Of a stretch of DNA of 33,219 bases, positions 1,089 to 24,153 are shown piece by piece. This stretch comes from Candidatus Polarisedimenticolaceae bacterium. GTDB lineage: Bacteria > Pseudomonadota > Gammaproteobacteria > Chromatiales > Chromatiaceae. The position numbers were made by a program, and so were the translations under genes. The DNA is taken from NCBI GenBank assembly GCA_021648685.1, contig JAKISI010000039.1, positions 1 to 33,219 of the forward strand, written 5' to 3'. The notes under the pieces are model-generated. The model had not been told where the DNA came from and made no database searches. It worked only from the letters and a program-made list of their open reading frames with translations. The number at the start of each line of letters is the position of its first letter. Positions within the stretch are counted from its first letter, which is position 1.

Positions 1089-2537
1089 ATGACCGATATA
1101 AAAAATATTGCCAGGGTGCTTGGCCCTGTGCTTGCCATTGCTTGCCCTCTGCTGATTGATATTCCTGGCCACCCTCAAGCGGCGTTCATGTTGGGCATCG
1201 CTTTATGGATGGCGCTGTGGTGGCTAACAGAGTGTGTCCCTTTGGCGGTTACCGCCTTGATTCCTCTTATTGCTTTTCCACTGTCGGGAATTGCCACAGC
1301 CAAAGAGACGGCACCGCGTTACATGACCAGTATCATGTTTCTGTTTGTCGGTGGGTTTTTGATTGCGCAGGCACTGGAGCGTACGGGCCTGCACAAACGC
1401 CTGGCGCTGGTGGTGCTCTCCCGCTTCCATCACAGCCCGTTTCAGATTCTGGTTGGCTTTGCCTTTACTACGGCCTTTCTGTCGATGTGGGTATCCAACA
1501 CTGCGACTACCATGTTGATGGTGACCATTGCGATAGCGGTGCTCAGCCGTCTGGACAAGCTCTTTAGTTCAGCTCAAATGAGCGCTTTTGCCACAGTGCT
1601 GCTGTTGACGATTGCTTACAGCGCCAATATTGGCGGCATGGGGACGCCGGTTGGCACGGTTCCCAATCTGGTCTTTCTGGAGAATGTTCGCACCACTTCA
1701 CCTGAGCTGGTGCCCAGTTTTATGCAGTGGATGATGGTCGGTGTACCGATGGTTATTGTCGGGTTAACCGTTGTGCTTTTGCTGCTGGGGCGCAAGGTTC
1801 GCTCACTGCATTGGCAGGCAGGCTCGGTTGATCATCTGCATGCTGAACTTCACACGCTGGGGCCACTCAAGCGGGATGAGAAGTTTGTTGGCTGGGTCTT
1901 GGGGCTTACCGCTGTGGCCTGGATGACGCGCCAGGGGATCAAGGGGGATGAGTTTGCTATTCCGGGCTGGTCATCGCTGCTGCCACACCCTGGCATTGAT
2001 GACGGCACTGTTGCTATCTTTTCTGCATTGCTGCTGTTTCTGATTCCGGTTCGCCAGGGGCAGCCGATACTCAATAAAGATGCGATTGGCAAGCTGCCGT
2101 GGGATATTCTTATTCTGCTGGGTGGTGGTTTTGCGCTGGCGATGGGGATGAAAGGTTCAGGTCTCTCTCTGTGGGTGGGCGAGCAGTTGAGCTTTCTCTC
2201 TGTGGTGCCATTGCCGTTGATGCTGCTGGGCATTGCTGCGGTGATCATCTTTCTGACGGAGATCACCAGCAACACGGCCACCACTCAGGTCATGTTGCCG
2301 GTACTGGCTGGTGTTGCGATTGCCACGGAGCAGGATTTGATCGCCCTGCTGTTGACGACTACTCTAGCGGCCTCTTGTGCCTTTATGTTGCCCGTGGCCA
2401 CGCCTCCCAATGCGATTGTTTTTGGGACGCAACGCATTCAGATTCAGGATATGATCAAAGCGGGTATTCGGCTCAATCTGGTAATGTTGGTTGTCGTGGT
2501 TGTCGTGGTCTGGTTTCTGCGCCCCTTGCTGCCTTGA
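1089..2537 (+). CDS. SLC13/DASS-family sodium:anion symporter
   Basis: A 482-residue inner-membrane protein with hydrophobic segments throughout. It carries both signature motifs of the divalent anion:Na+ symporter family: Ser-Asn-Thr at residues 136-138 (SNTATTMLM) and 394-396 (SNTATTQVM), each in a re-entrant hairpin tip, plus the matching Pro-rich loops GMGTPVGT (183-190) and PVATPPNAIVFG (435-446). In the known family (VcINDY, NaDC) the two SNT motifs bind substrate carboxylates and flank the sodium sites. Substrates are usually C4-dicarboxylates or citrate; some bacterial members carry sulfate or other anions, and the sequence alone does not decide. Length is normal for the family. The gene ends 5 bp from the end of the convergent triheme cytochrome gene. 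Confidence 0.9.
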   Translation: MTDIKNIARVLGPVLAIACPLLIDIPGHPQAAFMLGIALWMALWWLTECVPLAVTALIPLIAFPLSGIATAKETAPRYMTSIMFLFVGGFLIAQALERTGLHKRLALVVLSRFHHSPFQILVGFAFTTAFLSMWVSNTATTMLMVTIAIAVLSRLDKLFSSAQMSAFATVLLLTIAYSANIGGMGTPVGTVPNLVFLENVRTTSPELVPSFMQWMMVGVPMVIVGLTVVLLLLGRKVRSLHWQAGSVDHLHAELHTLGPLKRDEKFVGWVLGLTAVAWMTRQGIKGDEFAIPGWSSLLPHPGIDDGTVAIFSALLLFLIPVRQGQPILNKDAIGKLPWDILILLGGGFALAMGMKGSGLSLWVGEQLSFLSVVPLPLMLLGIAAVIIFLTEITSNTATTQVMLPVLAGVAIATEQDLIALLLTTTLAASCAFMLPVATPPNAIVFGTQRIQIQDMIKAGIRLNLVMLVVVVVVVWFLRPLLP

Positions 2538-2542
2538 GCAGG

Positions 2543-2887
2543 CTATTTGTCCTTAGCCGTTGGTAGAACCTCGTGGCAATAATCGCACAGATAGAGTGGA
2601 AAGGCGTAGGCGCTATTATGGCAGCCGGCATAGCCGCACTGCTGCTCAGTCATGTTTTTTTGCATGTTCATATCGTTACCCCCCTTCTTGTCGATGAAGA
2701 TCTTTGGGTGGCAATCGTCGCATTCGTACAGCTGTTCATGTAGCTTGTGCGGGTATGTGACAGCGCCCAAGCCGGCCGCTTTCATGCTCTCTACTTTTGA
2801 GTCAAGGATGATGTCAACGGTGTCAATAGCGAATGCGGGTGCGGAGAGTGCGATAAGCAGGAGTGCAGAGTGTAAAACCTTGGTCAT
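2543..2887 (-). CDS. Triheme c7-type cytochrome
   Basis: A 114-residue exported protein: signal peptide of about 20 residues ending ...APAFA, then one c7-type triheme domain of the kind catalogued as nanowire_3heme (TIGR04257). Heme sites are C56-x2-C-H60 (CDDCH), C84-x4-C-H90 (CGYAGCH, the longer spacing known from cytochrome c3) and C101-x2-C-H105 (CDYCH). Extra histidines in YPHKLH (45-50) can serve as distal heme ligands. It is the last gene of the - strand array and a stand-alone version of the domain that occurs twice in each of the three hexaheme proteins upstream. A role as a small mobile electron carrier is inferred. No good ribosome binding site is seen before the ATG at 2887. It ends 5 bp from the convergent transporter gene, with no hairpin terminator between them. 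Confidence 0.88.
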   Translation of the reverse strand: MTKVLHSALLLIALSAPAFAIDTVDIILDSKVESMKAAGLGAVTYPHKLHEQLYECDDCHPKIFIDKKGGNDMNMQKNMTEQQCGYAGCHNSAYAFPLYLCDYCHEVLPTAKDK

Positions 2888-2945
2888 TATATCGGTTATC
2901 CATTACTAAATTGGTAGTCATTGTATGGGGTTTGTCACTTTTGGG

Positions 2946-3917
2946 CTAGAAAAAATCACTATCCACCGGCTCTTGCGCTGCAGGTTGTTTAATGGGGGTA
3001 GCAGGGGTCTGAGGCAGGGGGGCTTTAAGCGGGCGCACCAAGATGTTTTTGTCGATGGGTTTGCCTTTTGGATGGTTATGGCAGCGAACACAGTCGCTGA
3101 TGGGGAAGCCAATTTTATCGTGGCAGCGGGCGCACCATTTCCCTTGGCCAATGCCGATCATGGTGATGTTGTTGGCTCCCAGCTCATCAATAAACATGGG
3201 GCCGCCCTGGGTGTCATGACAGATTTTGCACTCCAACCAGTAGCTGTGGATCTCATGTGGGAAGATAACATCTGGCATGCTCTCTCCTTTGGAGATGAAC
3301 AGGATGTCGGTATCCCGCAGTTCGTGCTCTGATATATCAACCTCTGGGTCGAGGCTCCAAAGTGGCTGGACGATCTTCTTTCGCACGGCAGCGGCCCAGT
3401 CTACCAGGCCGTATTTGTCCAGTGGCAAGCCGCTTTTTGATAATGCCAAAGGGTGCCAGCCGGAGCCTATTTCCATGATTTTTGAGTAGGGCTTGGCTAT
3501 TGACCCTGTTTTCCCAAGCAAGATGTTCCGTTTTTCATCCTCTCTGACAGAGTGTTGAATGACGCCAGGGCTCCATCCCTCCTCCAGGGAGTGGCAGCGC
3601 TCACACTCCAGAGGCTCCCAGGCCACGAGGCCATCGTGGCAGGCGCCGCACTGCCTTTTCTCCTCTGTGATGGTTGACATGGAGATCTCATTTGCGCCGG
3701 CCTCTATCTTGAAGAGGCTTTCGTGGCAGACATTGCAGCGGAAACGAATGCGATGAAACCAGTGGGGAAATACGACATCATCAACCTCAGCTTCACGCAT
3801 GGCATCAGCTGTTTTATTTAAGATAACATCGCCATATTCAGCCTGGAGGTCAGCCGACAGTATGATTAGACAGCAAAACAGAAATTTTGCAGGATGTGAT
3901 ATCAAATGCCTTAACAT
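2946..3917 (-). CDS. Hexaheme cytochrome, two c7-type triheme domains
   Basis: A 323-residue exported protein with a signal peptide (residues 1-26, hydrophobic 12-22). It contains two triheme domains. Domain 1 (about 45-110) has CNVCH (61-65), CGACH (90-94) and CERCH (105-109), preceded by FPHWFHRIRFRC. Domain 2 (about 214-280) has CKICH (230-234), CARCH (262-266) and CVRCH (276-280), preceded by IFPHEIHSYWLEC. Between them lies a 100-residue linker with the motif LPLDKYGLVDW (164-174), shared with the two other hexaheme proteins of the array. The C-terminal 40 residues are proline-rich. No transmembrane helix follows the signal peptide, so it should be periplasmic or secreted. It starts 8 nt after the stop of the unknown 141-residue protein. 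Function as an electron conduit is inferred from heme content and context. Confidence 0.9.
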   Translation of the reverse strand: MLRHLISHPAKFLFCCLIILSADLQAEYGDVILNKTADAMREAEVDDVVFPHWFHRIRFRCNVCHESLFKIEAGANEISMSTITEEKRQCGACHDGLVAWEPLECERCHSLEEGWSPGVIQHSVREDEKRNILLGKTGSIAKPYSKIMEIGSGWHPLALSKSGLPLDKYGLVDWAAAVRKKIVQPLWSLDPEVDISEHELRDTDILFISKGESMPDVIFPHEIHSYWLECKICHDTQGGPMFIDELGANNITMIGIGQGKWCARCHDKIGFPISDCVRCHNHPKGKPIDKNILVRPLKAPLPQTPATPIKQPAAQEPVDSDFF

Positions 3918-3925
3918 AAAAGGAG

Positions 3926-4351
3926 TTAGCTACATTCGTTGATTTTCAGCCTATAGGTGAGCTTACCGCTTTTGGTTCCTGCTTTTGCTTCACTCTCTTC
4001 CTTAACCTCTTCGCCAGAGATGTCTCGTAGGCCATGTACCATTACACGGATATAATCCAGTTCATCCTGGTCTGTATCCTTCCATTCACCACAGTCAGCC
4101 TCAATGACTTTTAGCTCTGCCATCATCTCGTTCAGAGCCTCTTTTTCATCCAGTCGAGTCTCTTTTTGGGCCAGGAGTTTAAGAATGGTCTTTTTAAAAA
4201 TGATGTTCCTGAACAGAAAAAGTCGCTTCCGAAAAAAGCTGGCATCCTTGGCCAGGTTTTGATGGATGGAGGCGAGCTGCTGCTTGGTCAGCTGTATCAG
4301 CTTCTTATAGAGACGCAGATCTTGTGGGTGGTTGATTGTGCTGCTCATCAT
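3926..4351 (-). CDS. Unknown cytoplasmic helical protein
   Basis: I do not recognise this protein. A longer frame reaches back to 4465, but its first 38 residues overlap the poly-lysine end of the upstream cytochrome gene. A GAGGT sequence lies 4 nt before the ATG at 4351 (a second ATG follows at 4348), so the start is placed there, giving 141 residues. It has no signal peptide and no heme motif. It is rich in Lys, Glu, Leu and Ile and probably mainly alpha-helical, with basic residues in the first two thirds (RKRLFLFRNIIFKK) and an acidic stretch near the end (SGEEVKEESEAKAG). It has only two cysteines. It lies between two hexaheme cytochrome genes with short gaps (23 and 8 nt), so it belongs to the same transcription unit; a role in making or controlling the cytochrome chain is possible but unproven. 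Confidence 0.65.
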   Translation of the reverse strand: MMSSTINHPQDLRLYKKLIQLTKQQLASIHQNLAKDASFFRKRLFLFRNIIFKKTILKLLAQKETRLDEKEALNEMMAELKVIEADCGEWKDTDQDELDYIRVMVHGLRDISGEEVKEESEAKAGTKSGKLTYRLKINECS

Positions 4352-4374
4352 GGTGACCTCGGTTAAGATAAAAT

Positions 4375-5562
4375 TCAGGATTTTTTCTTTTTCTTTTTCT
4401 TCTTTGGCTTTCCTATGTGGAGCAGGGCACCATCGAACATGACGCCTTTCTCCTGTATGTGACATCGTGTGCAGTCTGCAAATGTAAAAGAGACCTTGCC
4501 GTGGCAGTGGCCGCAGTATTGCCCCTTTGACATTCTGACCATCTTTACATTGTTGGTCAGGGTTTCGCTGAATACCTCAGGGTGGCAGGATGAACATTTG
4601 ATCCAGCTGGAGTGTACGTCATGGCTGAAGAGGACGTTTTTGGCCTTGCTTTTGGATTCAAAAAGAATCATGTTGTCCCGGATCTCAGGTTTGTAGTTTT
4701 CATCCAGTGAGTGTATTGGTTCAAACACCCCGGCTTTTTTCATTGTCAGCCAATCTATAAACCCAAACCGATCCACAGGAAGGCGTCTGCCGGGCAGTCT
4801 GCTGGCATCCCATTTGGCGCCAACCTTGTCGGCAACTGCGGTGATTGCCCTGTGATCAATGCGGCTTGCATCGTGTAGTCTGTCTGCTTCTGGTTTGCCG
4901 GCAAGATGGCAGCGGTCACAGTTCTCCTTGGTGCTGAAGGCGAGCTCTCCATTGTGACATTTACCGCACTGCTGCCCGGCTTCAAATTTTTTGTGGGTGA
5001 TGTCATTGCGCCACCGCTTCATAATGAAGATCTCCTGGTGGCAGACTTTGCATTCAAACCAGATGCGGTGTACCCAATGGGGGTAGATCACAGGGGCCAG
5101 CTTTTTCTCTACCATCTCTTTTTCGTAGGTTTTCATGACGAAGTTGCCGAGAAATCGCTCTTCGTTATCCCACTTCATCAGTTCGGCGTTCTTGGCCTTC
5201 TCTTTTTCCAGCTCTGCTTTTATGAGTTTGCCAATTTTTCGAAGCAGCTTTTTTCCGCCGCCGTGGTAGTAGTTATAGCCACTGGCCATGGCATTGGCGG
5301 CATCCAGCATGAACATTCTTTGCCCCTGGCTGAGGCCTTCGGCCAGGGCATCGTTGATCAGGCTTTTGATCTCGCCCGGCATGATGGCCTTGCTCTCTTT
5401 TATGAGTTCTTCCTGTGCTTTGAACTGAAATGATTTGTAGTTTGTGACAAATTCAATACGGAAGGGGGTGTCTTCTGCGTAACTCGCGGTGGAAGGGAGG
5501 AGGGTGAGGGGCAGGGTGGCAAAAAACCACAACAGCAGATGAAGTAACTTCTGTTGCTTCAT
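4375..5562 (-). CDS. Hexaheme cytochrome with poly-lysine tail
   Basis: A 395-residue exported protein: signal peptide 1-29 (hydrophobic 7-24, ...ASYA), then a heme-free, lysine/glutamate-rich helical part (about 30-155) that the other two hexaheme paralogues lack. Triheme domain 1 follows with CKVCH (171-175), CGKCH (199-203) and CDRCH (215-219). Then comes a linker with LPVDRFGFIDW (261-271). Triheme domain 2 has CSSCH (323-327), CGHCH (350-354) and CTRCH (364-368). The C-terminus ends in eight consecutive lysines and a serine, encoded by an A-rich tract that could be slippage-prone. The tail might dock acidic partners or surfaces; this is inference. No clear ribosome binding site precedes the ATG at 5562. 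It is sixth-heme-protein-like in layout to its neighbours and is likely periplasmic or extracellular. Confidence 0.9.
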   Translation of the reverse strand: MKQQKLLHLLLWFFATLPLTLLPSTASYAEDTPFRIEFVTNYKSFQFKAQEELIKESKAIMPGEIKSLINDALAEGLSQGQRMFMLDAANAMASGYNYYHGGGKKLLRKIGKLIKAELEKEKAKNAELMKWDNEERFLGNFVMKTYEKEMVEKKLAPVIYPHWVHRIWFECKVCHQEIFIMKRWRNDITHKKFEAGQQCGKCHNGELAFSTKENCDRCHLAGKPEADRLHDASRIDHRAITAVADKVGAKWDASRLPGRRLPVDRFGFIDWLTMKKAGVFEPIHSLDENYKPEIRDNMILFESKSKAKNVLFSHDVHSSWIKCSSCHPEVFSETLTNNVKMVRMSKGQYCGHCHGKVSFTFADCTRCHIQEKGVMFDGALLHIGKPKKKKKKKKS

Positions 5563-5635
5563 CGGGTGAATTCGAGCAGTGAATCATGATTTGTCATGGC
5601 TAAATAGTCGCTCTCCAATGCTTTGTTGGTGTGAT

Positions 5636-6832
5636 TTATTCGTTGGATCTCTGCCACTCTCTTGCTGATGCAATGGATTTTTTCAGGAACTCAGTTGAAA
5701 GCTGGTAGCCTTTTGATGCCCATTTATATTGCGCTTTTGATTCAGCATCAATAGCATCGGTGCGTTCGGTTTCTGCGCGTTTAAAAAGTTCCAGAGCAAC
5801 AGTGCCACCTGCACCCTCATGAATGCCTCTCTGCTTTGCCCGTTCGAGATAGGCATCGCTGGTAATGCGTGCGCTATCCATCTCGTTCTTGTCATTTCTG
5901 GCCTCTGTCTCTTTGGCACGCGCCAGTTTCATGGCATTTTTTAATGTTTTTGCAAGTTTTTGCAGTGCCCAGTAGGCCTCTTCATACTGCTCTTCATCAA
6001 TCTTGCCTGCAATGGTGTTGATGCGTTTTTGCCCTCGGGCAAAAAGGGTTATCGCTTCACTGTTTTCGCTCTCTTTTACTTTCTGGGCGTTTTTGTCTGA
6101 CAGCAGGCGGGTATCGATATATTTGAACTGCCGGATGACGGATTTTTTCAGCTTTTTCGGGGTCATTCCTTTGGGGATGACTCTTTTCTCCTCTTTGCTG
6201 GTTTTGCTGCTGCTGTAACCCTGCCGCTTTGAGGTGGCAATGGCCTTTTTCAACAGCTCCATTGAGCTGAGATAGACAGCTGTAGCATCTTTATACTTGT
6301 TGTTTTTTTCAAGCAGGCTTGCCTCTTTGCGCTTCTCTATAGCTCGTTTGTATAGTTTGTGCGCCTCTTCACCTCCATTGCCATCATGAATGCTGCGCTG
6401 CTTGGCGCGCTCTTCGTAAGCGTCGCTCTTTATTCTTGCGCTGTCCAGATCATTCTTTATTTTTTTGGCAGAGAGCCCTTTTGCACGGACAAGTTTTGCG
6501 GCGCTTCGCAGTGAGCTGCCAAGATCTTTCAGTGCCCAATAGGCCGCTTCTATTTCGCCTTTTTCAATCTGTTTGGCAATAATATCCCGGTTTTCTTTGC
6601 TCTCATTCAGAATAGAGATGGCTTTGTTGTTGCCGCTGTTCAGAATCTGATCGGCACTTTTCCCTGCAAGAAGGCGCTTATCAATATATTTAAGCTGGCG
6701 ATGGACAGACTTTTCCAGCTTGGCTGGGGTCATTTTCTTGGGAAGGGATCTCTCCTGCGCAAAAGCAAGAGGAGCGGTACATGAGAATAAGAAGAGTGTG
6801 ATGATTAAACATCTCAACATTGTATTCATCAT
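5636..6832 (-). CDS. Secreted heme-free protein of two tandem repeats
   Basis: A 398-residue exported protein of unknown function. The start is set at 6832 because GGAG (complement of 6838-6841) lies 5 nt before this ATG; a frame from 6847 would lack such a site. A signal peptide (about residues 1-25, ending ...PLAFA) is followed by two homologous repeats of about 173 residues, 30-202 and 219-391, joined by a Ser/Lys-rich linker. Both share PK-x-MTP-x-KL, KYID-x-RLL, AYWAL, and the best-conserved block DSARI-x-SDAY-x-ERAKQR followed by IH-x-G-x-GG. The composition is charged and strongly helical, like tetratricopeptide or coiled-coil scaffolds, but no known family is recognised. There is no CxxCH. 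It lies inside the cytochrome array, 29 nt downstream of one hexaheme gene and 73 nt upstream of another, so it may be a structural partner or scaffold of the cytochromes (inference). Confidence 0.8.
   Translation of the reverse strand: MMNTMLRCLIITLFLFSCTAPLAFAQERSLPKKMTPAKLEKSVHRQLKYIDKRLLAGKSADQILNSGNNKAISILNESKENRDIIAKQIEKGEIEAAYWALKDLGSSLRSAAKLVRAKGLSAKKIKNDLDSARIKSDAYEERAKQRSIHDGNGGEEAHKLYKRAIEKRKEASLLEKNNKYKDATAVYLSSMELLKKAIATSKRQGYSSSKTSKEEKRVIPKGMTPKKLKKSVIRQFKYIDTRLLSDKNAQKVKESENSEAITLFARGQKRINTIAGKIDEEQYEEAYWALQKLAKTLKNAMKLARAKETEARNDKNEMDSARITSDAYLERAKQRGIHEGAGGTVALELFKRAETERTDAIDAESKAQYKWASKGYQLSTEFLKKSIASAREWQRSNE
5660..6178 (-). repeat. Protein-coding repeat unit 2
   Basis: Second copy of the internal duplication in the heme-free secreted protein. 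It is offset by 189 codons from unit 1 (6227-6745). Conservation is at protein level, with the block SDAY-x-ERAKQR kept exactly in both; the DNA has diverged, which points to an old duplication. Confidence 0.8.
6227..6745 (-). repeat. Protein-coding repeat unit 1
   Basis: First copy of the internal duplication in the heme-free secreted protein, beginning at LPKKMTP and ending at IATSKR. It aligns with unit 2 almost without gaps. Confidence 0.8.
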
Positions 6833-6861
6833 GCCCGCTCCAGCCATTTTACAGTGCCTGT

Positions 6862-7875
6862 TTAGTCAAACGTGCAGTCATCGCTTGCCTTGCATGCGGC
6901 AACCTTTTCTCTATTATGGCACTTTTCGCAATCCTCCAGTGGGAAGGCAACCTTGCCATGGCACTCGCCACAGTACTTGCCTTTGGCCATCTCTCTCATG
7001 GTCATGGGGGTGTCGCCCGCTGTACGCACAAAGCGGTGTGGGTGGCAGCTTTTGCAGTTCAGCCACCAGGTGTGCAGGGTATGGGGAAAGAGCACTTCAG
7101 CAATGGTTTTGCTCTTCACCTTGATCACCATATCTTCGATATCCTCATCACCATCAGGGTCAAAGGCATAGTGGACTGGTGATTCATACAGTGGATCATC
7201 AGGGTCGATTGAACCTTTCGGCAGAAGCATGCCGTTCTTTGTGATCTTGATCCAGTCTACGAGGCCGTACTTGTCCTTTGGCAGGCCCGCCATGGAGAAG
7301 GCGCGTGGCTGCCAGCCACCGCCCCATTTGAAGGCGTTGCCTGATGGTTTGCGGCGATCACCTTTACCGGCCATTTTGCCGCTGCGTCCAGCAAACAGCA
7401 GATTGGCAGGGTTGGTATCTTCGGGTGGTGGAGCGGCTTCAGCATCCAGCTGTTCCATCGGGTAGTAGTGGCAGAGCTCGCACTCAAGTGGATCCCATGC
7501 AACGGATCCATCATGGCACATGCCGCACTGTTCGCCGGCGCTGATCTGATCCATATCAACGTTGTTTTCACCTTTGTTGGTTACAAAGGTATCTTCGTGG
7601 CAGACTTTGCAGCGAAAACGAATTCGATGGAACCAGTGTGGAAATACAACGGCCTCTACTTCACCCTCTTCCATGCCTTCTCTGGTTCTGGTCATGATAA
7701 TGTCACCGTACACAAGATTTACGGCTTCATAGTCCATCACGGGATCAGCAGGGGCGGCTGCTTTGGGTGCAGGCGCAGGCGCTGCTTTTTCAGCAGAATG
7801 AACTGCACTGGTAAATAACAATAGGCCTATAGTCAGAATAACTGACAGCAACCCTGAGCTACGCATTTTCAGCAT
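6862..7875 (-). CDS. Hexaheme cytochrome, two c7-type triheme domains
   Basis: A 337-residue exported protein. Signal peptide 1-28 (hydrophobic 9-22), then an alanine/proline-rich spacer (30-46). Triheme domain 1 has CKVCH (89-93), CGMCH (117-121) and CELCH (132-136), preceded by VFPHWFHRIRFRC as in the 323-residue paralogue. Triheme domain 2 has CKSCH (274-278), CGECH (302-306) and CEKCH (316-320). The linker holds LPKDKYGLVDW (198-208), shared by all three hexaheme proteins, and an Asp-rich stretch (about 239-248). Two further cysteines near the C-terminus (328, 334) are not in a heme motif. GGGAGG lies about 9 nt before the ATG at 7875. It is the first hexaheme gene of the array and sits behind the monoheme cytochrome, from which it is separated by a strong hairpin. 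Confidence 0.9.
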   Translation of the reverse strand: MLKMRSSGLLSVILTIGLLLFTSAVHSAEKAAPAPAPKAAAPADPVMDYEAVNLVYGDIIMTRTREGMEEGEVEAVVFPHWFHRIRFRCKVCHEDTFVTNKGENNVDMDQISAGEQCGMCHDGSVAWDPLECELCHYYPMEQLDAEAAPPPEDTNPANLLFAGRSGKMAGKGDRRKPSGNAFKWGGGWQPRAFSMAGLPKDKYGLVDWIKITKNGMLLPKGSIDPDDPLYESPVHYAFDPDGDEDIEDMVIKVKSKTIAEVLFPHTLHTWWLNCKSCHPHRFVRTAGDTPMTMREMAKGKYCGECHGKVAFPLEDCEKCHNREKVAACKASDDCTFD

Positions 7876-7915
7876 TACGCTACCCTCCCGGATATATATT
7901 TATTATGGTGTAACT

Positions 7916-7945
7916 GTTCAAGGGGGCGTTGAAGCCCCCTTGAAC
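7916..7945 (-). promoter_or_regulatory. Perfect 12-bp stem-loop between cytochrome genes
   Basis: The arms 7916-7927 and 7934-7945 are exact inverted repeats (12 bp, six of them G:C in a row) around a 6-nt loop. In the - strand transcript the hairpin lies 16 nt after the stop codon of the monoheme cytochrome gene. No T-run follows it on either strand, so it is not a classical terminator. Such stem-loops inside operons often block 3' exonucleases and raise the level of the upstream message, or cause partial termination. Confidence 0.7.
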
Positions 7946-7961
7946 ATCTAAATGTAGCTAA

Positions 7962-8399
7962 TTACTTCTCAAAGCCACGGATGATGTGAACCATGATCCA
8001 GCCTTCCTCTTCGGATATCTCCTTGCCTTTCTTTGCGATACCTGCTTTCCAGCCTTTCATTTCGGTATCTTTACTGCCGTTCATGGTGAGCCAGTAAAGT
8101 TGGCCATCGGTGGCAGGTGATCCGGCTGTCCAGTCAGGCGGCGGCGGCTCCATCCCTTTGGCACCTGGCCCCTTGCCGTTGCCTTTGGAGCCATGACACT
8201 TTTTGCACTTCTTTTTGTAGGCCTTTTTCATGACCATTTTGATGGCATCTTCATCGGCTTCAACCGGATTGGTCAGGCCTACGGCATCGGCTGGTACTTT
8301 TGCCAGGGTTGCCTCGGAGGTGGCAGCAGCAAACCCGGCGGCCAGACTCATGCTCAGTGCAACGGTTGCTATGGTGATACTCTTTTTCAATCGCTTCAT
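7962..8399 (-). CDS. Monoheme cytochrome c (periplasmic)
   Basis: A 145-residue exported class I-type cytochrome c. The start is the ATG at 8399, preceded by GGAGG 6 nt upstream; a longer in-frame GTG start at 8411 would use that ribosome site as coding sequence. Signal peptide about 1-25 (hydrophobic 9-23, ...GFAAA). One heme site, CKKCHG (65-70), followed by the typical glycine-rich GNGKGPGA and PPPPDW segments; Met114 (DTEMKGW) is the likely sixth ligand. The protein is very rich in lysine. The gene stands apart from the pentaheme gene by 167 nt with two hairpins, and from the next gene by 86 nt with a third hairpin, so its expression may differ from its neighbours. It may carry electrons between the membrane complex and the multiheme proteins (inference). 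Confidence 0.88.
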   Translation of the reverse strand: MKRLKKSITIATVALSMSLAAGFAAATSEATLAKVPADAVGLTNPVEADEDAIKMVMKKAYKKKCKKCHGSKGNGKGPGAKGMEPPPPDWTAGSPATDGQLYWLTMNGSKDTEMKGWKAGIAKKGKEISEEEGWIMVHIIRGFEK

Positions 8400-8474
8400 A
8401 GTTTCCTCCACGGATACTTGATAGTTCGAAGAAATACAAGTTGATAGCGGTATTTCACCCGCTGGTTAATACTA

Positions 8475-8503
8475 TATCCAGCACAAGGTGTTTATGCTGG
8501 ATA
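8475..8503 (-). promoter_or_regulatory. 9-bp inverted repeat upstream of monoheme cytochrome
   Basis: Arms 8475-8483 (TATCCAGCA) and 8495-8503 (TGCTGGATA) are perfect inverted repeats with an 11-nt loop. It lies about 75 nt upstream of the cytochrome start in the non-coding 167-nt gap. It may be an RNA processing or pausing hairpin or an operator; no T-run follows. Confidence 0.5.
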
Positions 8504-8518
8504 GAGCTTTAGAGTCGC

Positions 8519-8550
8519 CCAGCTATAGATGAGTTCAAATCCATAGCTGG
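8519..8550 (-). promoter_or_regulatory. 8-bp inverted repeat behind pentaheme cytochrome gene
   Basis: Arms 8519-8526 (CCAGCTAT) and 8543-8550 (ATAGCTGG) are perfect inverted repeats with a 16-nt loop. In the - strand message it follows the pentaheme stop codon by 16 nt and is followed at once by the second hairpin at 8475-8503. The pair separates the membrane-complex genes from the soluble cytochrome genes. Confidence 0.5.
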
Positions 8551-8566
8551 ACCACACATTTTGCGC

Positions 8567-9232
8567 TTACTCTTCTTCCATCTCGGGCCATGCGACGTCT
8601 GCATGAACAAGGTTGTAGTGGCAGTTGATGCAGGAGAGACCTTTTTCTTCCATGGTTTTGTGTTGGCCAATATCCTGCCACCATACGCTCTCTGTTTTGT
8701 GGCATGTCAGGCACTTTTCACTCTTGTTTTCAACCATCTTCTGGCGTACTTTTGCGGCCTGCTTGGGTCGAAGTTCGTTCTCCCACATCTCTATGTCGCG
8801 CAGGCTGCTGGAGACGGCGTGGAATGGGCTCTCTCCGATGACACCCTTGTTCAGGTATATAAATTTCCAGTGCAGGATTTCGCGTACACTATGTGGGTCA
8901 TGACAGCCCACGCAGCCTGGGCGCACCTCAAGCTCGTTGTCGTAGTGAGCGGACTCGCGGTACTCCTCGTAGGGGTAGGCGTGGCACTCTGCACAGCCAG
9001 CGGTTACATCGAAGGCACCGGGTTCAAAGACCTCTTTGGGTTTGTAGTCTTCAACATCTTCACTTGCGGTTCCCATGGGCCTGTATTCGTCGAAGTCAAC
9101 GAATACCTCATGGCAGATGGTGCATGCGCTGATTCGAGTAAACCGGTCGCTGGTACAGCTCAGACCTGAAAAGAGCAGAACCAGGACGATGGCACCGATG
9201 ATGATAAGCACACCTTTGGTTGTTGTGTTCAA
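8567..9232 (-). CDS. Membrane-anchored pentaheme cytochrome c
   Basis: A 221-residue protein (from a TTG at 9232 with GGAGG 8 nt upstream; another TTG at 9262 would add ten residues but lacks a ribosome site). One N-terminal uncleaved-looking membrane segment (about 7-25) is followed by five heme motifs: CTICH (37-41), CAECH (80-84), CVGCH (107-111), CLTCH (174-178) and CINCH (201-205), the last followed by NLVHADVAWP. The anchor plus multiheme layout and the H-N-x-VH-A-DV end recall NapC/NirT-type quinol dehydrogenases and the cytochrome subunits of Qrc (QrcA) and alternative complex III (ActA). It lies 41 nt behind the molybdopterin subunit gene, so it is probably part of the same membrane complex and passes electrons between that complex or quinol and the soluble cytochromes. 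Which direction electrons run cannot be told. Confidence 0.82.
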   Translation of the reverse strand: MNTTTKGVLIIIGAIVLVLLFSGLSCTSDRFTRISACTICHEVFVDFDEYRPMGTASEDVEDYKPKEVFEPGAFDVTAGCAECHAYPYEEYRESAHYDNELEVRPGCVGCHDPHSVREILHWKFIYLNKGVIGESPFHAVSSSLRDIEMWENELRPKQAAKVRQKMVENKSEKCLTCHKTESVWWQDIGQHKTMEEKGLSCINCHYNLVHADVAWPEMEEE

Positions 9233-9273
9233 TCTTCCATCCTCCGTTATCGTATCTATCAAGAGAGCAGGGG

Positions 9274-11625
9274 TTAACCCATTTGTCTCTTATATATGGC
9301 TTCATGTTTGGCGTTATCGACTTTGATGTCGCCATATTTGTCGCCCGGTTCTGAAGGTGAAATCGTCACCACCGTATCATTCCAGGCCTGTGCTCCAGAT
9401 GCTGGATCAATGGCCAGTGGAATGATGTCGTTGGGGTTGATGCCACCATCTCTCCACCAGAGGTTGGCAGAAATATCCTCATCTATCTGTGATTCCGATG
9501 CCAGAGGTGTGGCTGCAGCTGGGTCTGCCTGGGCAACCCGGCCATAGGCGGAACGTCCAACAGAGGTAGAGAAGCCGATGACCTGAGGATGAATGCCCTG
9601 GGTTAACCAGGCCTTGGTAACTAGGTAGCCAACTTCGCTTTTGACTCTGACCAGCTCGCCGTCACCAATGCCCAGTTTTAATGCGATATCCTTGTTTATC
9701 CATAGCGGATTGGAGTGCCATAGTTCGGACAATATTTTCAGGTTGGAGGTGCGAGAGAGGCTCTGATAACTCACTTTGAAGGTGGTCAACACAAATTCGT
9801 TTGACTTGATACCAGAGAGCCGCGGGTTTTCTGTCCATGTTGGTGCAGAGACCTCAATCTTGCCAGAGGGGGTGGCAAATCCACTAGCTTCGTAGGTCTT
9901 GTATTCAACCGGGACAGGCTCACCGTTTTTGACAATCTTGCGTGTGTTGAGGTCGATCTTGCCATAGGCTGGAAAAACACCTTTCTTGAGCTTTTTATAA
10001 CCTTTTTGCTCCAGGCCGGCGGTACCTTCAACCTCTTTTTTGACCCACTCTTTGGCATTTTTAAAAGCCCAATACTGCTTCATGCCACGACTGCCGTCCG
10101 CATCAATGGTTTCGACAATCTTCTTCAGTGTTTCGCGAACATCCTGTGCCTTGCCACGGGATGGAACACCTGGAATGGTCATGGTGGCCCAGGGGAGCAG
10201 TGCGGTTGGGCTGCTGCCAACGTCGTGACGCTCGATGGATGCCACATCTGGCAGGATAATGTCTGCCAACTCAGATGTCTCACTCATAAAGGGGCTGAAA
10301 TCAACCAGGTAGGGAACCAGACTCTCATCTTTCAGCACATCACGCCAGATGCTTGCTGCTGGAGAGGAGTAAGCCGGGTTGCTCATGTGGTTGAACAGTA
10401 CGGCCACCTTGCGCTGGCCGCCCTTAACCTCGAATGGAAAGGTGTGATTCAGCTGGCGTGAGCTGCTGCCAGATGGGGCGGGTGCGGGTTGAATGGAGGC
10501 AATATCGAACTGACGTGGCAGGCAGTTACCGCCTTCAATGTCGATGTTCCCGGTTATGATAGCCAGCAGCTGGCAGGCTGCTTCGGCATCTACGCCACCC
10601 TGATGAAAGCTCAGCCCATTTTGACTGACGACAGTGGCTGGCTTGTTTTTGGCAAACTCAATGGCGATGCGTTTGATGTCATTGGCTGAAACCCCACTCG
10701 CTTTCTGCGCCTTGTCCGGTGTGTAGGCCTTCAGCTGCTGAGCCAGTTCAGCTGCAGTAGTATTGGTCCAACTGTTGATGAAGTCAACATTTGCCAGACC
10801 CCTCTCCATGATCACGTTGGCCATAGCCAGTGCGATGAGGCCGTCGCTGCCTGGGAATACTGGAAGCCACTCATCGCTTCTACCGGCGGTGTGCGACATG
10901 CGCACCTCAAAGGTGACAAGTTTAAGCCGGTTGTTGACAATGCCATCGGTCAGCCGTTGAGCCAGCGGCATGGCTGTTTCAATAATGTTGGCACCAAAGT
11001 TCAGGACATATTTGGTATTTTCAAAGTCCGGTAGTGTGCTGTCCACACCAAAGGTCTTTTTAAGTACCAGCTGCTTGGCAACACTGCTGATGGAGGGAAC
11101 CCGGCTGCGGATCACGGAGCTTGAACCCAGCGTATCCATGAAGCGGGTTGTGCCGCCATCTTTAAAGGCACCCTCATTCAGATGGATGCTGTCTGGGTTA
11201 CTGTCCAGTGCCGCTTTTACCTTTGCGGAGACCTCGGTGATCGCTTCATCCCAACTGATCTCTGTCCACTGTCCAGAGCCGCGTGGGCCGGAGCGCTTCA
11301 TGGGGGCGAGAATTCTGTCGGGATCAGAGGCGCCAAAGAAGGATGCCAGCCCTTTGGAACAGAACTTGCCGCGTGTTGCGATGTGGTCGGGGTTGCCCTC
11401 GACCTTCTCTATTTTACCAGCTTCTTCATAGCAGAACCCGCCATCGAAATAGGGACACATGGTGCAAAGATAGGTTGTCTTTTTGCGCGCATGAAAGGTC
11501 CTGATTTGATGGAAGTCGGCACCGCCCAGCTTAAGCTCCATGGCTGAACCCATGGAGGGGACTGCTACAGCAGTAGTAGCGACTGCGCCTGCTTTCAAGA
11601 AGTCTCGTCTGTTGATTTTTGACAT
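9274..11625 (-). CDS. Tat-exported molybdopterin oxidoreductase-family subunit
   Basis: A 783-residue DMSO-reductase-superfamily protein. The start is the ATG at 11625 (GGAG 8 nt upstream), giving a twin-arginine signal NRRDFLKAG (5-13) before a hydrophobic stretch. The N-terminal [4Fe-4S] motif is C54-x2-C57-x7-C65-x23-C89. The usual molybdopterin domains follow, including late dinucleotide-binding landmarks such as SELADIILPDV, ATPSGKIEV and LWHSNPLWINKD. In the place where Psr, Nap and Fdh enzymes have the Mo-binding Cys or Sec (after DTLGSSSV, residues 165-171) there are only serines (178, 180, 181) and no cysteine. It could therefore be a Ser-ligated enzyme like DmsA, or a subunit that has lost molybdenum, as reported for QrcB. 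It is translated with the NrfD and four-cluster FeS subunits (16-nt and 14-nt gaps). The substrate is not evident. Confidence 0.85.
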   Translation of the reverse strand: MSKINRRDFLKAGAVATTAVAVPSMGSAMELKLGGADFHQIRTFHARKKTTYLCTMCPYFDGGFCYEEAGKIEKVEGNPDHIATRGKFCSKGLASFFGASDPDRILAPMKRSGPRGSGQWTEISWDEAITEVSAKVKAALDSNPDSIHLNEGAFKDGGTTRFMDTLGSSSVIRSRVPSISSVAKQLVLKKTFGVDSTLPDFENTKYVLNFGANIIETAMPLAQRLTDGIVNNRLKLVTFEVRMSHTAGRSDEWLPVFPGSDGLIALAMANVIMERGLANVDFINSWTNTTAAELAQQLKAYTPDKAQKASGVSANDIKRIAIEFAKNKPATVVSQNGLSFHQGGVDAEAACQLLAIITGNIDIEGGNCLPRQFDIASIQPAPAPSGSSSRQLNHTFPFEVKGGQRKVAVLFNHMSNPAYSSPAASIWRDVLKDESLVPYLVDFSPFMSETSELADIILPDVASIERHDVGSSPTALLPWATMTIPGVPSRGKAQDVRETLKKIVETIDADGSRGMKQYWAFKNAKEWVKKEVEGTAGLEQKGYKKLKKGVFPAYGKIDLNTRKIVKNGEPVPVEYKTYEASGFATPSGKIEVSAPTWTENPRLSGIKSNEFVLTTFKVSYQSLSRTSNLKILSELWHSNPLWINKDIALKLGIGDGELVRVKSEVGYLVTKAWLTQGIHPQVIGFSTSVGRSAYGRVAQADPAAATPLASESQIDEDISANLWWRDGGINPNDIIPLAIDPASGAQAWNDTVVTISPSEPGDKYGDIKVDNAKHEAIYKRQMG

Positions 11626-11641
11626 TGTTCTATTCTCCAAA

Positions 11642-12547
11642 TCAATAGAAGGACTGTATGTATTGACCGCCCATAACCCACCAGATCCGCATGCCGTATA
11701 CACCAACGGCGACCAGGAAGGCGGCACCATACACACCAATCCGTGTGTGCTTGAGTGGTGTTACCAGCAGGATGAGTGGGATAAGCAGGCCGATAACGAC
11801 CTCCAGCCATATGTAGGGTGTGAAGAAGATCTCCATCAACACCGTACCGTGGGCGAGATATTCGCTTGCCGTGCCGTACTGAGTCTGCATGAAGTCAAGA
11901 AAGAGCAGGAAGAAGTCAAATACGATGCCGTACATCATATATTGCGCCATCTCCTCCATGAGCTCCCACTTGATCCTCTTCTCTGGCCGTGTGAACTGGT
12001 TCTGAATCCACAGCACCAGGATCATCAAACCAATACCCGATATAAATGCACCTGTAAGAAACAACAGTGGTGCGAGTGGGGTGTGGTTGAGGTAGCGGCC
12101 GGGGTTCAGCTCCATCACTACGCCGGTATACCAGTGTGTGGAGAGGGCGAGAACAATGGCTATGATGCCGACTATCTTTGCCCATTTCTGATCGTTTTTA
12201 ATGACGAAGTAGGTATAGACAAACATCGAGATCGGGTAGCTCAGAATCAGCAAAGTACCCCAGGACATGGGAGCCGTGCCGTGCCAATACCCCGGTAGCA
12301 TGAGGTAGATGAAGCGGAACGGTTTGCCCAGATCCCAGATCAGCAGAACGGGAACGATCATCAACATGACAATAGCCAGTATTGATGCGGTCAGAGCCAA
12401 TGGCTTGTAGCGTTTAATGCCGAATACCCAGCCAAAAGCGGAGAGTACAAATGAACCGGCACTGGCACCAACGAGCCAGAAGTAGACGGTGATAGGAGTC
12501 CCCCACGCAGCGTGATGGACGGCGTTATAGGTAATTATGGTTTCCAT
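11642..12547 (-). CDS. NrfD/PsrC-family quinone-interacting membrane subunit
   Basis: A 301-residue integral membrane protein with about eight hydrophobic segments, the number known for PsrC of polysulfide reductase. The N-terminal part (YNAVHHAAWGTPITVYFW and LVGASAGSFVLSAFG) and the WDLGKP (71-76) motif followed by FRFIYLML are typical of the NrfD family. These subunits anchor the Tat-exported catalytic and FeS subunits to the membrane and exchange electrons with quinone on the periplasmic side. The gene stands between the FeS gene (14 nt upstream) and the molybdopterin gene (16 nt downstream), the usual companions. The family call is firm; the complex type (Psr-like reductase, Qrc-like quinone reductase, or quinol oxidase feeding the cytochromes) is open. 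Confidence 0.9.
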   Translation of the reverse strand: METIITYNAVHHAAWGTPITVYFWLVGASAGSFVLSAFGWVFGIKRYKPLALTASILAIVMLMIVPVLLIWDLGKPFRFIYLMLPGYWHGTAPMSWGTLLILSYPISMFVYTYFVIKNDQKWAKIVGIIAIVLALSTHWYTGVVMELNPGRYLNHTPLAPLLFLTGAFISGIGLMILVLWIQNQFTRPEKRIKWELMEEMAQYMMYGIVFDFFLLFLDFMQTQYGTASEYLAHGTVLMEIFFTPYIWLEVVIGLLIPLILLVTPLKHTRIGVYGAAFLVAVGVYGMRIWWVMGGQYIQSFY

Positions 12548-12561
12548 TGCAGTCTCCCCCC

Positions 12562-13440
12562 TTATGCAAACAGCAGCTTTTTAAGCGCGGCAACCACATC
12601 GAAAAATTTATGTGGTATCGACGCCAGGAAGTCGGACATGTTTTTGCCTACATGGTACATAGTGTTCTCACCCTCAACGATATCTCCAAAAGCATCGCCG
12701 TGATGATTGCGCTTGTAGGTGTTGAACTCTTCCTTCTGCTGTGCGGTACGGTGTTTGTAGTTGTGAGGCTCATCCATGATCTCCCAATCACCACCGATGT
12801 AGTAGACAGATGGACTTGTCCCAAGCTCAGGCTTGAGTACCGTCAGCTTCTCTCTGGCGACAAGTTTTGCTACTTCGCTTTTGGGGTCGTTAACATCACC
12901 AAATATGCGTGCACCGCCTACGCAGGCCTGTACACATGCAGGCACCAGCCCCTTCTTGACCCGATGGATACAGAAGGTGCATTTATCGACAACCAGTACC
13001 GGCAGGTTGTTATTGGTGCGTTTGGCGGGGAGAAAATGTCTGGCGTTGTATGGGCATGCAACAACACAGGTTCGACACCCAATGCAGCGGTTATACCGCT
13101 GTAGCACAAAGCCCTCTTCATGTTTGAAGGTGGCTTGTGTGGGGCAGTTGCGTACGCAGATGGGGTAGTCGCAGTGGTTGCACAGGCGGGGCATGAAGAT
13201 GCGCCTGCTATTGGGATACCTTCCCTTGTCTGCAACCATAACCCAGGTTCGCCAGACACCCAGAGGGACGCCATATTCGGCTTTACAAGCTACTACACAG
13301 GACATGCAGCCAATGCATTTCCTGAGGTCGATGACCATTGAGTAACGCCTTTTGCCGGGGATACCCTTTGTTCCCGGCGTTTGAGATCCATACTCGCGTA
13401 GAGCGTGAGCAGGACTCGTTTGTTTGCTTTCTGTTGTCAT
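12562..13440 (-). CDS. Four-cluster ferredoxin-type subunit (PsrB/QrcC/DmsB-like)
   Basis: A 292-residue iron-sulfur protein. The start at 13440 is chosen because GGGAG lies 5 nt upstream; the frame extends to 13572 but that part looks non-coding. Sixteen cysteines form four [4Fe-4S] sets in the order known for this family: 42/45/48/52 (CIGCMSCVVAC), 87/90/95/99 (CNHCDYPICVRNC), 119/122/125/129 (CIGCRTCVVAC) and 154/157/169/173 (CTFC...CVQAC). It has no signal of its own, as expected for a subunit co-exported with a Tat-signal partner. The subunit relays electrons between the NrfD-type membrane subunit and the catalytic-like subunit. The C-terminal 100 residues (DWEIMDEPHNYKH onward) are longer than in simple PsrB proteins. 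It is the first gene of the 11-gene array. Confidence 0.9.
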   Translation of the reverse strand: MTTESKQTSPAHALREYGSQTPGTKGIPGKRRYSMVIDLRKCIGCMSCVVACKAEYGVPLGVWRTWVMVADKGRYPNSRRIFMPRLCNHCDYPICVRNCPTQATFKHEEGFVLQRYNRCIGCRTCVVACPYNARHFLPAKRTNNNLPVLVVDKCTFCIHRVKKGLVPACVQACVGGARIFGDVNDPKSEVAKLVAREKLTVLKPELGTSPSVYYIGGDWEIMDEPHNYKHRTAQQKEEFNTYKRNHHGDAFGDIVEGENTMYHVGKNMSDFLASIPHKFFDVVAALKKLLFA

Positions 13441-13775: not shown

Positions 13776-14546
13776 TTATCTGTTCAGTAGTCGATGAACA
13801 TATTTGACAGGAATGGCATAGCTGATCCCGGTTGGATTGGTCAGCGCAGACTCCTTGGTGTTCTTTACCAGAACGCTGTTTACTACCCCCAGCACCTGGC
13901 CGGTATCTATAGAATACAGCGGGCTGCCACTGTTGCCTGGATAGGCCGTGGCATCTAATTGAAAGACATTGAACGGGTTTTTCATACGGCGAATATGTTT
14001 TACCTCCAGCTGCCGTGAATTCAGTGCGGGAATGACAATGGGGGTAATGGCAGAGACAATGCCGCGGTGAGTGACTGGATAAAGCCCCAGTACCATGCCG
14101 ATAGGAAAGCCGGTGAAAGCATACAGCTCGCCCTCGCGCACGGTTGCAGAGTCCCCCAGTTTTAGTGCCGGCAGTGGCTCTCCGGTAATGGCCAGTAGCG
14201 CAAGATCATGAACCGCATCGGTAGCTACTACAGTGGCTTTGCGCCCTTTGGCCTGTTTTCCACGGCCTTGAAATATGGCCAGTGTCTCCCGCCGGGCGTA
14301 GTCTACTATCTTCGGGATTACATGGTGGTTGGTGATGATATGGCGCCCATCCCCTACGACAAATCCAGTGCCCATGAATTGAGCTTTAGGGCTGCGGGTA
14401 GGCATGATAGTCCCGATGGCTACGATGCTTGGACGAATGGTGTCTACGGTATTGGGGAGCTCGCTTGCAGCAGCGAACAGTGGGGAAAGCAAGATCATGA
14501 GCCAGGCGATGTTGCCGTATAGCAGTGAGTCCTGCTTTTCAGTCAT
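13776..14546 (-). CDS. Exported trypsin-like serine protease (S1C type, no PDZ)
   Basis: A 256-residue protein with an N-terminal hydrophobic segment (13-27, ...FAAASEL) and one chymotrypsin-fold domain. The catalytic triad is readable: His75 in TNHHV, Asp114 in VHDLALL and Ser206 in GNSGSP, with the typical substrate-pocket segment GISYAIPV near the end. This is the DegP/HtrA-like S1C type, but the protein ends after the protease domain with no PDZ domain, unlike DegP/DegS. It should act in the periplasm. GGGG stands 8 nt before the ATG. It is upstream of and codirectional with the cytochrome array but 335 nt away, so it is probably a separate unit. It is divergent from htpG, sharing a 168-bp control region. 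A role in protein quality control is inferred from family and neighbour. Confidence 0.87.
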   Translation of the reverse strand: MTEKQDSLLYGNIAWLMILLSPLFAAASELPNTVDTIRPSIVAIGTIMPTRSPKAQFMGTGFVVGDGRHIITNHHVIPKIVDYARRETLAIFQGRGKQAKGRKATVVATDAVHDLALLAITGEPLPALKLGDSATVREGELYAFTGFPIGMVLGLYPVTHRGIVSAITPIVIPALNSRQLEVKHIRRMKNPFNVFQLDATAYPGNSGSPLYSIDTGQVLGVVNSVLVKNTKESALTNPTGISYAIPVKYVHRLLNR

Positions 14547-22787: not shown

Positions 22788-22791
22788 GGTA

Positions 22792-24145: not shown

Positions 24146-24153
24146 TTATTGGT

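What the first reader, a model, noticed from the sequence alone, without database searches (positions are those of the whole stretch)
2543..13440. Eleven-gene array joining a quinone-linked FeS/molybdopterin complex to 27 c-type hemes
Seen: on one strand, in order, FeS subunit (16 Cys), NrfD-type membrane subunit, Tat-signal molybdopterin subunit, anchored pentaheme, monoheme, three hexahemes and a triheme cytochrome, interleaved with two proteins of unknown function. Known: Psr, Qrc and alternative complex III contain the first four subunit types; c7-type triheme domains occur in proteins thought to carry electrons over long distance. Inference: one system moving electrons between the quinone pool and a chain of triheme-domain proteins in the periplasm or outside. 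No outer-membrane porin of the MtrB type is in the window, so an exit route, if any, is elsewhere or unconventional.
Basis: partly seen in the sequence, partly recalled or inferred. Interest (0 to 1): 0.85.

Follow-up and report, generated by a model that had tools for sequence, protein, structure and literature searches.

The report
Quinone complex wired to heme chain
A block of eleven bacterial genes, kept in the same order in eight related genomes, appears to link the membrane's electron pool to a chain of 21 periplasmic hemes through a complex built around a molybdenum-enzyme relative that has lost its metal-binding cysteine.

Summary
In detail: eleven genes, one strand, window 13440-2543, 27 c-heme sites (26 CXXCH plus one CX4CH). 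The order is kept in all eight genomes of the taxonomic order that carry the core (three genera), with differing flanks. Two modules can be told apart. (1) A core (FeS, NrfD, molybdopterin-like, pentaheme, monoheme) also occurs in seven genomes outside the clade, with no hexaheme in the stretches read; in six of them it adjoins a cd1 nitrite-reductase (NirS-type) gene. Its molybdopterin subunit lacks Cys at the Mo-ligand column in 15 of 15 sequences; six of six fetched catalytic relatives keep that Cys and a TorD-type chaperone gene, which 17 core stretches lack. The parts match alternative complex III or Qrc in kind, not in sequence or subunit plan. (2) An array of seven triheme c7 domains (21 hemes), with a helical two-repeat periplasmic protein, is confined to the window's family in our samples. 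Best reading: a non-catalytic quinone:cytochrome c conduit, elsewhere tied to nitrite reduction, here plugged into a periplasmic c7 relay or store. Direction is inferred. No MtrB-type porin was found in six array-bearing genomes searched, so an extracellular exit has no support. New variant of a known kind.

The parts
12562..13440 (-). FeS subunit, 16 Cys (room for four 4Fe-4S clusters)
   Evidence: PF13247 E 3.1e-21; 16 Cys; all 16 fall in conserved positions or motifs of the family alignment A13 as read there
11642..12547 (-). NrfD-type quinone-linked membrane subunit
   Evidence: PF03916 E 8e-35; family profile matches ActC 6f0k_C at 3.1e-4
9274..11625 (-). molybdopterin-oxidoreductase-like subunit with Tat signal; Cys absent at the Mo-ligand column
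   Evidence: PF00384, TAT_signal; alignments A5 and A10 and L130
8567..9262 (-). membrane-anchored NapC/NirT-like pentaheme cytochrome
   Evidence: PF03264 E 3.4e-24; 5 CXXCH; hydrophobic stretch 18-36
7962..8411 (-). monoheme cytochrome c
   Evidence: PF00034 E 6.9e-6, 1 CXXCH
6862..7875 (-). hexaheme A, two c7 triheme domains
   Evidence: TIGR04257 E 5.6e-38; two domains over cut-off
5636..6847 (-). unknown A: probably secreted (N-terminal hydrophobic stretch), all-helical by prediction, two tandem repeats of about 177 residues
   Evidence: no family; repeats score 398 against at most 75 in 200 shuffles; model pLDDT 88, pTM 0.40
4375..5562 (-). hexaheme B, two c7 triheme domains and an N-terminal extension
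   Evidence: TIGR04257 E 6.2e-38; alignment A7
3926..4348 (-). unknown B: 140 aa, no hydrophobic stretch found; goes with the core (relatives at L030, L033)
   Evidence: no Pfam; hydropathy; profile hits L030 1.1e-56 (in the profile) and L033 3.3e-15
2946..3917 (-). hexaheme C, two c7 triheme domains
   Evidence: TIGR04257 E 1.5e-29
2543..2887 (-). triheme c7 cytochrome (2 CXXCH, 1 CX4CH)
   Evidence: PF14522 E 6.9e-10; TIGR04257 55.5 bits
574..936 (+). cupredoxin beside the array; possible small redox partner, membership uncertain
   Evidence: PF00127 E 2.1e-11; beside the array also in L019 and L021; cupredoxins near the core in L029, L034, L036

Best explanation
The core (FeS, NrfD, molybdopterin-like, pentaheme, monoheme) is a membrane-anchored, periplasm-facing, non-catalytic electron conduit between quinone and c-type cytochromes. 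It works like alternative complex III or Qrc but is put together from parts of its own. Proposed path: quinol at NrfD -> FeS clusters -> pentaheme -> monoheme, with the large subunit as scaffold. In other lineages the sink is probably the neighbouring cd1 nitrite reductase; in this clade it is an array of seven triheme c7 domains (21 hemes) that relays or stores electrons in the periplasm, with unknown A perhaps a helical scaffold. Shown: gene content, synteny, missing Mo-ligand Cys and missing chaperone gene, NirS neighbourhood. Inferred: that the proteins form one complex, the electron path, the direction, and the roles of the array and of the two unknowns.
For: Same order in 8 of 8 core-bearing genomes of the order. 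No Cys at the Mo-ligand column in 15 of 15 core-family sequences, against Cys in 6 of 6 siblings fetched out of 15, and in L038 and L039. TorD-type gene at 6 of 6 siblings and 0 of 17 core stretches (PF02613 in the 4 sibling ORFs rightly picked). NirS-type cd1 gene beside the core in 6 of 7 genomes outside the clade; the L030 one matches P. aeruginosa NirS at 1.7e-155. Cupredoxins near the core in three of these and in the window. ACIII has the same kinds of parts: pentaheme with one N-terminal helix, monoheme, Tat-exported Mo-like domain without prosthetic group, FeS part, NrfD-like ActC, and in R. marinus an all-helical periplasmic subunit (PMC5928083, passages). QrcB is described as without redox cofactors (PMC13059093, passages). 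The c7 domains match 3ov0 at 1e-39 (that this is GSU1996 is recalled); GSU1996 is described as periplasmic and most likely an electron store (PMC10138318, passages).
Against: The Ser reported in all quinone-interacting NrfD-like subunits (PMC8076601, sections 7 and 8 read) aligns with Ala or Gly in 13 of 13 core-family rows, in a weak alignment to ActC (first piece 6.0 bits); sibling L024 has Ser. Four FS0 ligand positions are kept, so the large subunit may still hold a cluster, unlike QrcB and ActB. Ser is at a nearby column (S178) in 14 of 15, and L031 has a Cys one residue after the ligand column. Free-standing c7 hemes are usually of low potential (recalled), which suits quinol oxidation poorly. 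No cd1 gene in the clade's own stretches (0 of 8). L035 lacks cd1 in the 8 kb read upstream. No expression or biochemical data.
Confidence: 0.58

Rival explanations
1. Same complex, opposite direction: a Qrc-like entry. Low-potential c7 proteins collect electrons from periplasmic or surface donors and the complex reduces quinone, conserving energy through NrfD.
For: Qrc is a cytochrome c3:menaquinone oxidoreductase with a cofactor-free Mo-like subunit and is electrogenic (PMC13059093, abstract and passages). c7 and c3 hemes are usually of low potential (recalled).
Against: Outside the clade the core lies with NirS-type genes, monoheme c and cupredoxin, which points outward. No donor enzyme was seen beside the array in the window.
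Confidence: 0.22
2. The large subunit is an active molybdo- or tungsto-enzyme (for example of a sulfur compound) that gives or takes electrons through the hemes, with another residue as metal ligand or none.
For: Nearest families are PhsA and PsrA. FS0 positions are kept. Ser at S178 in 14 of 15 could be a ligand if the alignment to formate dehydrogenase 9vap is right; alignments to 9vap, ArrA and PsrA place the ligand at S178, P177 and S180 respectively. L031 has a Cys one residue on.
Against: The column that holds Cys in the six siblings and the two outgroups is Ser, Asn or Gly here. No TorD-type gene in 17 core stretches against 6 of 6 siblings. PhsA score 256.5 against a cut-off of 694.
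Confidence: 0.11
3. An extracellular electron-transfer wire: the c7 array hands electrons across the outer membrane to minerals, electrodes or partner cells.
For: The c7 domains are named 'nanowire_3heme'. Predicted periplasmic triheme cytochromes are part of the Uet pathway (PMC10734462, passages). A second c7 cluster with a b561 protein is in the genome (L009).
Against: No MtrB/PioB match in the 6 array-bearing genomes searched (no control over the cut-off). No porin or surface cytochrome seen in the window. The closest solved relative is described as a periplasmic store. Uet-type and other porins were not searched for.
Confidence: 0.07

Closest known systems
Alternative complex III (ActABCDEF)
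   Same: Kinds of parts: N-terminally anchored pentaheme, monoheme, Tat-exported Mo-like part without prosthetic group, FeS part, NrfD-like ActC; six hemes in ActA plus ActE (PMC5928083, passages)
   Different: FeS and Mo-like parts are separate genes here, one NrfD-type gene, no second NrfD-type gene in the array; the pentaheme is NapC/NirT-like and its profile finds no ActA chain in the PDB; FS0 ligand positions are kept in the Mo-like part
Qrc (QrcABCD)
   Same: Mo-like subunit related to CISM catalytic subunits, FeS subunit, NrfD-type subunit and a multiheme c partner (PMC13059093, passages)
   Different: Below the curated cut-offs of QrcB (158.3 of 440) and QrcC (125.9 of 400); hexaheme C scores 30.2 of 180 with QrcA; pentaheme instead of QrcA next to the core
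PsrABC/PhsABC-type molybdoenzymes, and the L024-type siblings of the same taxonomic family
   Same: Homologous FeS, NrfD and large subunits: L024 shares 60.7%, 30.8% and 42.2% identity with the window proteins
   Different: Siblings keep the Mo-ligand Cys and a TorD-type gene and have no multiheme gene in the stretches read; the core family is the reverse
GSU1996-type c7 'nanowire' cytochromes of Geobacter
   Same: Same triheme domain (3ov0, E 1e-39; name recalled)
   Different: Here 2+2+2+1 domains on four proteins, the pair in each hexaheme separated by a long linker, and encoded with a quinone complex; GSU1996 has four domains with short linkers in one chain (PMC10138318, passages)

Membership tests
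Alternative complex III | Fused ActB and two NrfD-like subunits (ActC, ActF) | tested here: not met
   FeS and Mo-like genes are separate and one NrfD gene is in the array; definition from PMC5928083 passages
Alternative complex III | Anchored pentaheme plus monoheme cytochrome | tested here: met
   homology to ActA not detected
Alternative complex III | Mo-like part without prosthetic groups | tested here: inconclusive
   Mo-ligand Cys absent, but three FS0 Cys invariant in A5, so a cluster may remain
Qrc | Curated QrcA, QrcB, QrcC models | tested here: not met
   30.2 of 180, 158.3 of 440, 125.9 of 400
Qrc | Cytochrome c to quinone electron transfer, electrogenic | not testable with these tools
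   Needs purified complex
PhsA/PsrA molybdoenzyme | Cys ligand to Mo | tested here: not met
   15 of 15 core-family sequences lack Cys at the column where 6 of 6 siblings have it; L031 has a Cys one residue on
PhsA/PsrA molybdoenzyme | TorD-type chaperone gene alongside (as in the siblings) | tested here: not met
   0 of 17 core stretches, 6 of 6 siblings; several core stretches are cut by contig ends
NrfD family, quinone-interacting | NrfD fold family membership | tested here: met
   PF03916, E 8e-35
NrfD family, quinone-interacting | Conserved Ser near the quinone pocket (Ser164 of ActC) | tested here: inconclusive
   Aligns to Ala or Gly in 13 of 13, but the alignment piece scores only 6.0 bits; D72 and R287, which align to the other two positions named in PMC8076601, are kept
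DsrMKJOP (DsrO) | DsrO and DsrP models with DsrMKJ alongside | tested here: not met
   DsrO 204.9 against 200 passes narrowly; DsrP 70.9 against 350; no DsrMKJ in the window
c7 triheme ('nanowire_3heme') domain proteins | TIGR04257 domain over the curated cut-off | tested here: met
   7 of 7 domains of the array
Mtr-type extracellular conduit | MtrB/PioB outer-membrane porin | tested here: not met
   No match in the 6 array-bearing genomes searched, nor in G003; 2 of the 13 genomes in that call, both outside the clade, had weak matches; no control genome rang over the cut-off

The most novel reading that the evidence does not exclude
A further, independent turning of a Psr-like molybdoenzyme into a dead scaffold made a minimal complex-III equivalent. 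It served cd1 nitrite reductase as a private quinol-to-NirS line, and in one gammaproteobacterial family it was re-plugged into a 21-heme c7 array that, held by the repeat-helical unknown A, forms a periplasm-wide electron bus shared with a second, b561-linked entry (the C60 cluster).
Probability: 0.33. Interest if true: 0.82.

Novelty: new variant of a known kind. Interest (0 to 1): 0.6.

Why it matters
The NrfD review names about a dozen complexes in its abstract, and this combination is not among them nor in the parts of its Table 1 that I saw (PMC8076601). If right, it adds a case in which a molybdoenzyme lost its metal site and became wiring, offers NirS-type denitrifiers a possible bc1-independent quinol route, and shows one core with two different sinks (NirS in one set of genomes, a c7 array in another). 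That natural swap makes it testable what sets the partner and the direction of such a complex.

Tried and rejected
Rejected: membership of DsrMKJOP, although the FeS protein passes the DsrO cut-off by 5 bits (204.9 against 200): NrfD scores 70.9 against the DsrP cut-off of 350, no DsrMKJ is in the window, and the FeS protein of the Mo-enzyme sibling L024 reaches the same cut-off (200.1 against 200). In the own genome the window gene is the only one of two DsrO matches over the cut-off. Not decided: methanotroph context (PF02461 silent in the own genome, but nothing rang in the controls either).

Led nowhere: a fold match for unknown A. Foldseek best E 0.65; VIA-align best Z 10.7 to an 81-residue chain, within what that tool warns of for helical bundles. 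Unknown B: model pLDDT 50, not searched. Pentaheme against the PDB: nothing at 0.001, profile best E 0.17. Promoter and terminator scan: 14 and 19 found against shuffle means 11.9 (sd 3.6) and 14.7 (sd 4.2), no clear excess.

Paper searches (an open-access library only; I read listings and, where said, passages). No title or abstract start in these listings describes this core or array; papers behind the listings were mostly not opened.

Limits: the class sample gave the core in 3 of 369 genomes, own included; the phylum sample gave hexahemes in 1 of 398, the own. Of the 20 loci, L025-L028 and L032 are contigs with the same lengths as those of G002, G001, G005, G017 and G004 and were counted once; L036 and L037 are one MAG; L030 is G127/G575; L034 and L117 belong to one genome (G578). 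L038-L044 (22-40% identity) were not counted as core; L038 and L039 served as outgroups, L040-L044 were dropped. L029, L034 and L035 end close to the core on one side. The short Mo piece of L037 was left out of the ligand count. In one search one sibling ORF (L131 2604-3494) was the wrong strand and matched nothing; the right one was found by profile.
Full report
Observation. The eleven genes are present on the minus strand between 13440 and 2543 in the stated order. Heme sites are 5, 1, 6, 6, 6 and 3, in all 27, one of them CX4CH. Pfam and NCBIfam support the FeS, NrfD, molybdopterin (with Tat signal), NapC/NirT-like pentaheme, monoheme and c7 identities. Gaps between neighbouring genes are 8-26 bases at six of ten junctions and 58, 73, 86 and 155 at the others. 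Substitutions against L022 are strongly biased to synonymous sites in all eleven genes.

Synteny. The profile A5 of the large subunit finds 23 of 210 genomes of the order, in two groups: 8 at more than 1400 bits and 15 at 565-631 bits. The 8 are the window's genome, G001, G002, G004 and G005 of the same genus, G017, and G423 and G424 of a third genus. In all 8 the array follows the core in the same order: six arrays are whole on one contig, the window included (L019, L021, L022, L023; L066; unknown B is broken in L021), one is cut in hexaheme C by a contig end (L020), and one is split inside hexaheme A over two contigs (L067 and L130). Flanks differ between genera and partly within the genus. 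Unknown A is about half as long in G423 and G424 (207 aa) as in the others (about 400 aa).

Modularity. The hexaheme profile A7 finds 11 of 210 genomes of the order and only the own genome among 398 of a phylum sample at 1e-40. Three of the 11 (G003, G549, G550) lack the core. The window's genome has a second c7 cluster with a b561-type protein, one hexaheme, three triheme proteins and two more heme proteins (L009); the spacing of matches in G003, G549 and G550 suggests the same there, but I did not read those stretches. Conversely, seven genomes found with A1 hold the core with no hexaheme in the stretches read: L029, L030, L036/L037 (Gammaproteobacteria records), L031 (Rhodospirillaceae), L033 (Arenicellales), L034 (Halieaceae) and L035 (Magnetococcales). 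Apart from the pentaheme, the only ORF there with two or more CXXCH is a three-heme one in L030 beside DsrO- and DsrP-like genes.

What the core sits with elsewhere. In 6 of these 7 genomes a cd1-type gene adjoins the core: on the 3' side in L029 and L030, on the 5' side in L031, L033 and L036/L037, and in the genome of L034 on a contig that carries cd1, monoheme, FeS and the start of NrfD in a row (L117). L035 has none in the 8 kb read upstream, and its locus ends about 450 bases after the pentaheme. The L030 protein matches P. aeruginosa NirS over c and d1 domains at 1.7e-155. L031 continues with a uroporphyrinogen methyltransferase, a second d1-domain protein (NirF-like is my label), a siroheme-decarboxylase-like protein (121.5 bits, under its cut-off of 140), and NirJ (over its cut-off). 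In the clade no cd1 gene is in the stretches read (0 of 8 genomes), but the own genome has four PF02239 matches elsewhere: two about 41% identical to the L030 protein, one 27%, and one NirF-like.

The large subunit. In alignment with L024, L038 and L039, the column of the Mo-ligating Cys holds Ser, Asn or Gly in the core family, which also has two extra residues just before it; 15 of 15 core-family sequences lack Cys there. Caveats: L031 has a Cys one residue on, a nearby column (S178) is Ser in 14 of 15, and pairwise placements against PsrA, ArrA and a formate dehydrogenase differ by up to three residues. Six siblings of the same taxonomic family, of 15, were fetched (L024, L131-L135): all have the Cys and a TorD-type gene, found with a profile built from four of them (PF02613 in 4). 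None of 17 core stretches (15 genomes) has one. FS0 Cys 54, 57 and 89 are invariant in A5; the fourth position is Asp in 13 of 13 of A5 and 6 of 6 siblings but Cys in L066 and L130, so the Asp does not go with the loss. On a tree of 23 rows the core family is set off from the siblings (100/99), and the eight array-bearing rows form one group with 89/92, short of the tool's threshold; forks within the core family are mostly open and the outgroup branch is long, so which sink came first is not shown.

Comparison with known complexes. By kinds of parts the core resembles ACIII (PMC5928083, passages) and Qrc (PMC13059093, passages). It is a member of neither by the tests above: no fused ActB, one NrfD gene, Qrc models far under their cut-offs. 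Works like them, most likely; is not one of them.

Against the reading. The Ser held to be conserved in quinone-interacting NrfD-like subunits (PMC8076601, sections 7 and 8 read) aligns with Ala or Gly in 13 of 13 rows, though in a weak alignment; L024 has Ser. D72 and R287, at the other two positions discussed there, are kept in every row that covers them. Either the quinone site is altered or the NapC-like pentaheme meets the quinone (recalled for NapC/NrfH). Direction is open: neighbours outside the clade point outward, the usual low potential of c7 hemes (recalled) points inward.

The array. Seven c7 domains, nearest solved relative 3ov0 (GSU1996 by recall), which its students describe as periplasmic and most likely a store (PMC10138318, passages). 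No MtrB/PioB match in the 6 array-bearing genomes searched (limited by the lack of a ringing control). Unknown A is predicted all-helical with good local confidence but pTM 0.40, without an informative fold match; one short relative lies next to a Rieske, cytochrome b and octaheme set (L070). A scaffold role is a guess, helped only by the all-helical ActH of R. marinus ACIII. Unknown B has relatives next to the core in L030 and L033, so it belongs with the core rather than the array.

Verdict. A real, conserved, two-module system; a new variant of a known kind; interest 0.6.

Noticed in passing
L009 9361-15862 (own genome, contig C60): A second c7 cluster: hexaheme, three triheme-domain proteins, a seven-heme and a three-heme protein around a b561-type membrane protein; matches spaced alike in G003, G549, G550, which lack the core.
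   Followed up: partly
L070 4093-7765 (G005, contig C161): A Rieske-like and cytochrome b set with an eight-heme cytochrome c (PF13447) followed by a short relative of unknown A (the Rieske label is mine).
   Followed up: partly
L116 5848-10524 and L118 11576-16241: A cd1-type gene next to a 943/926-aa protein with six heme motifs; the L116 one joins a NapC/NirT domain to an ethylbenzene-dehydrogenase heme domain.
   Followed up: partly
L030 19992-22376: DsrP-, DsrO- and three-heme (DsrJ-like, my label) genes lie 4 kb from the core and cd1 gene, on the other strand.
   Followed up: no
L010 206-1390; L019 1146-2453; L021 1902-3086: Close paralogues of hexaheme B (66-68% identity); in L019 and L021 they lie beside the array, in the window's genome on another contig.
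   Followed up: no
L021 5512-5933; L036 7528-9137: Genes in two reading frames: unknown B in L021 and the cd1 gene in L036/L037; real decay or assembly error not told apart.
   Followed up: no
window 1089-2537 and 13776-14546: The array is flanked by a sodium:sulfate-symporter-family gene and a trypsin-like protease gene in the window and partly in its nearest relatives, not in other genera.
   Followed up: no
window 22786-32978: A run of glycosyltransferase, cytidylyltransferase, dehydrogenase, methyltransferase and MptE-like genes, with a 468-aa protein (27466-28872) without a Pfam match: perhaps a surface-glycan cluster.
   Followed up: no
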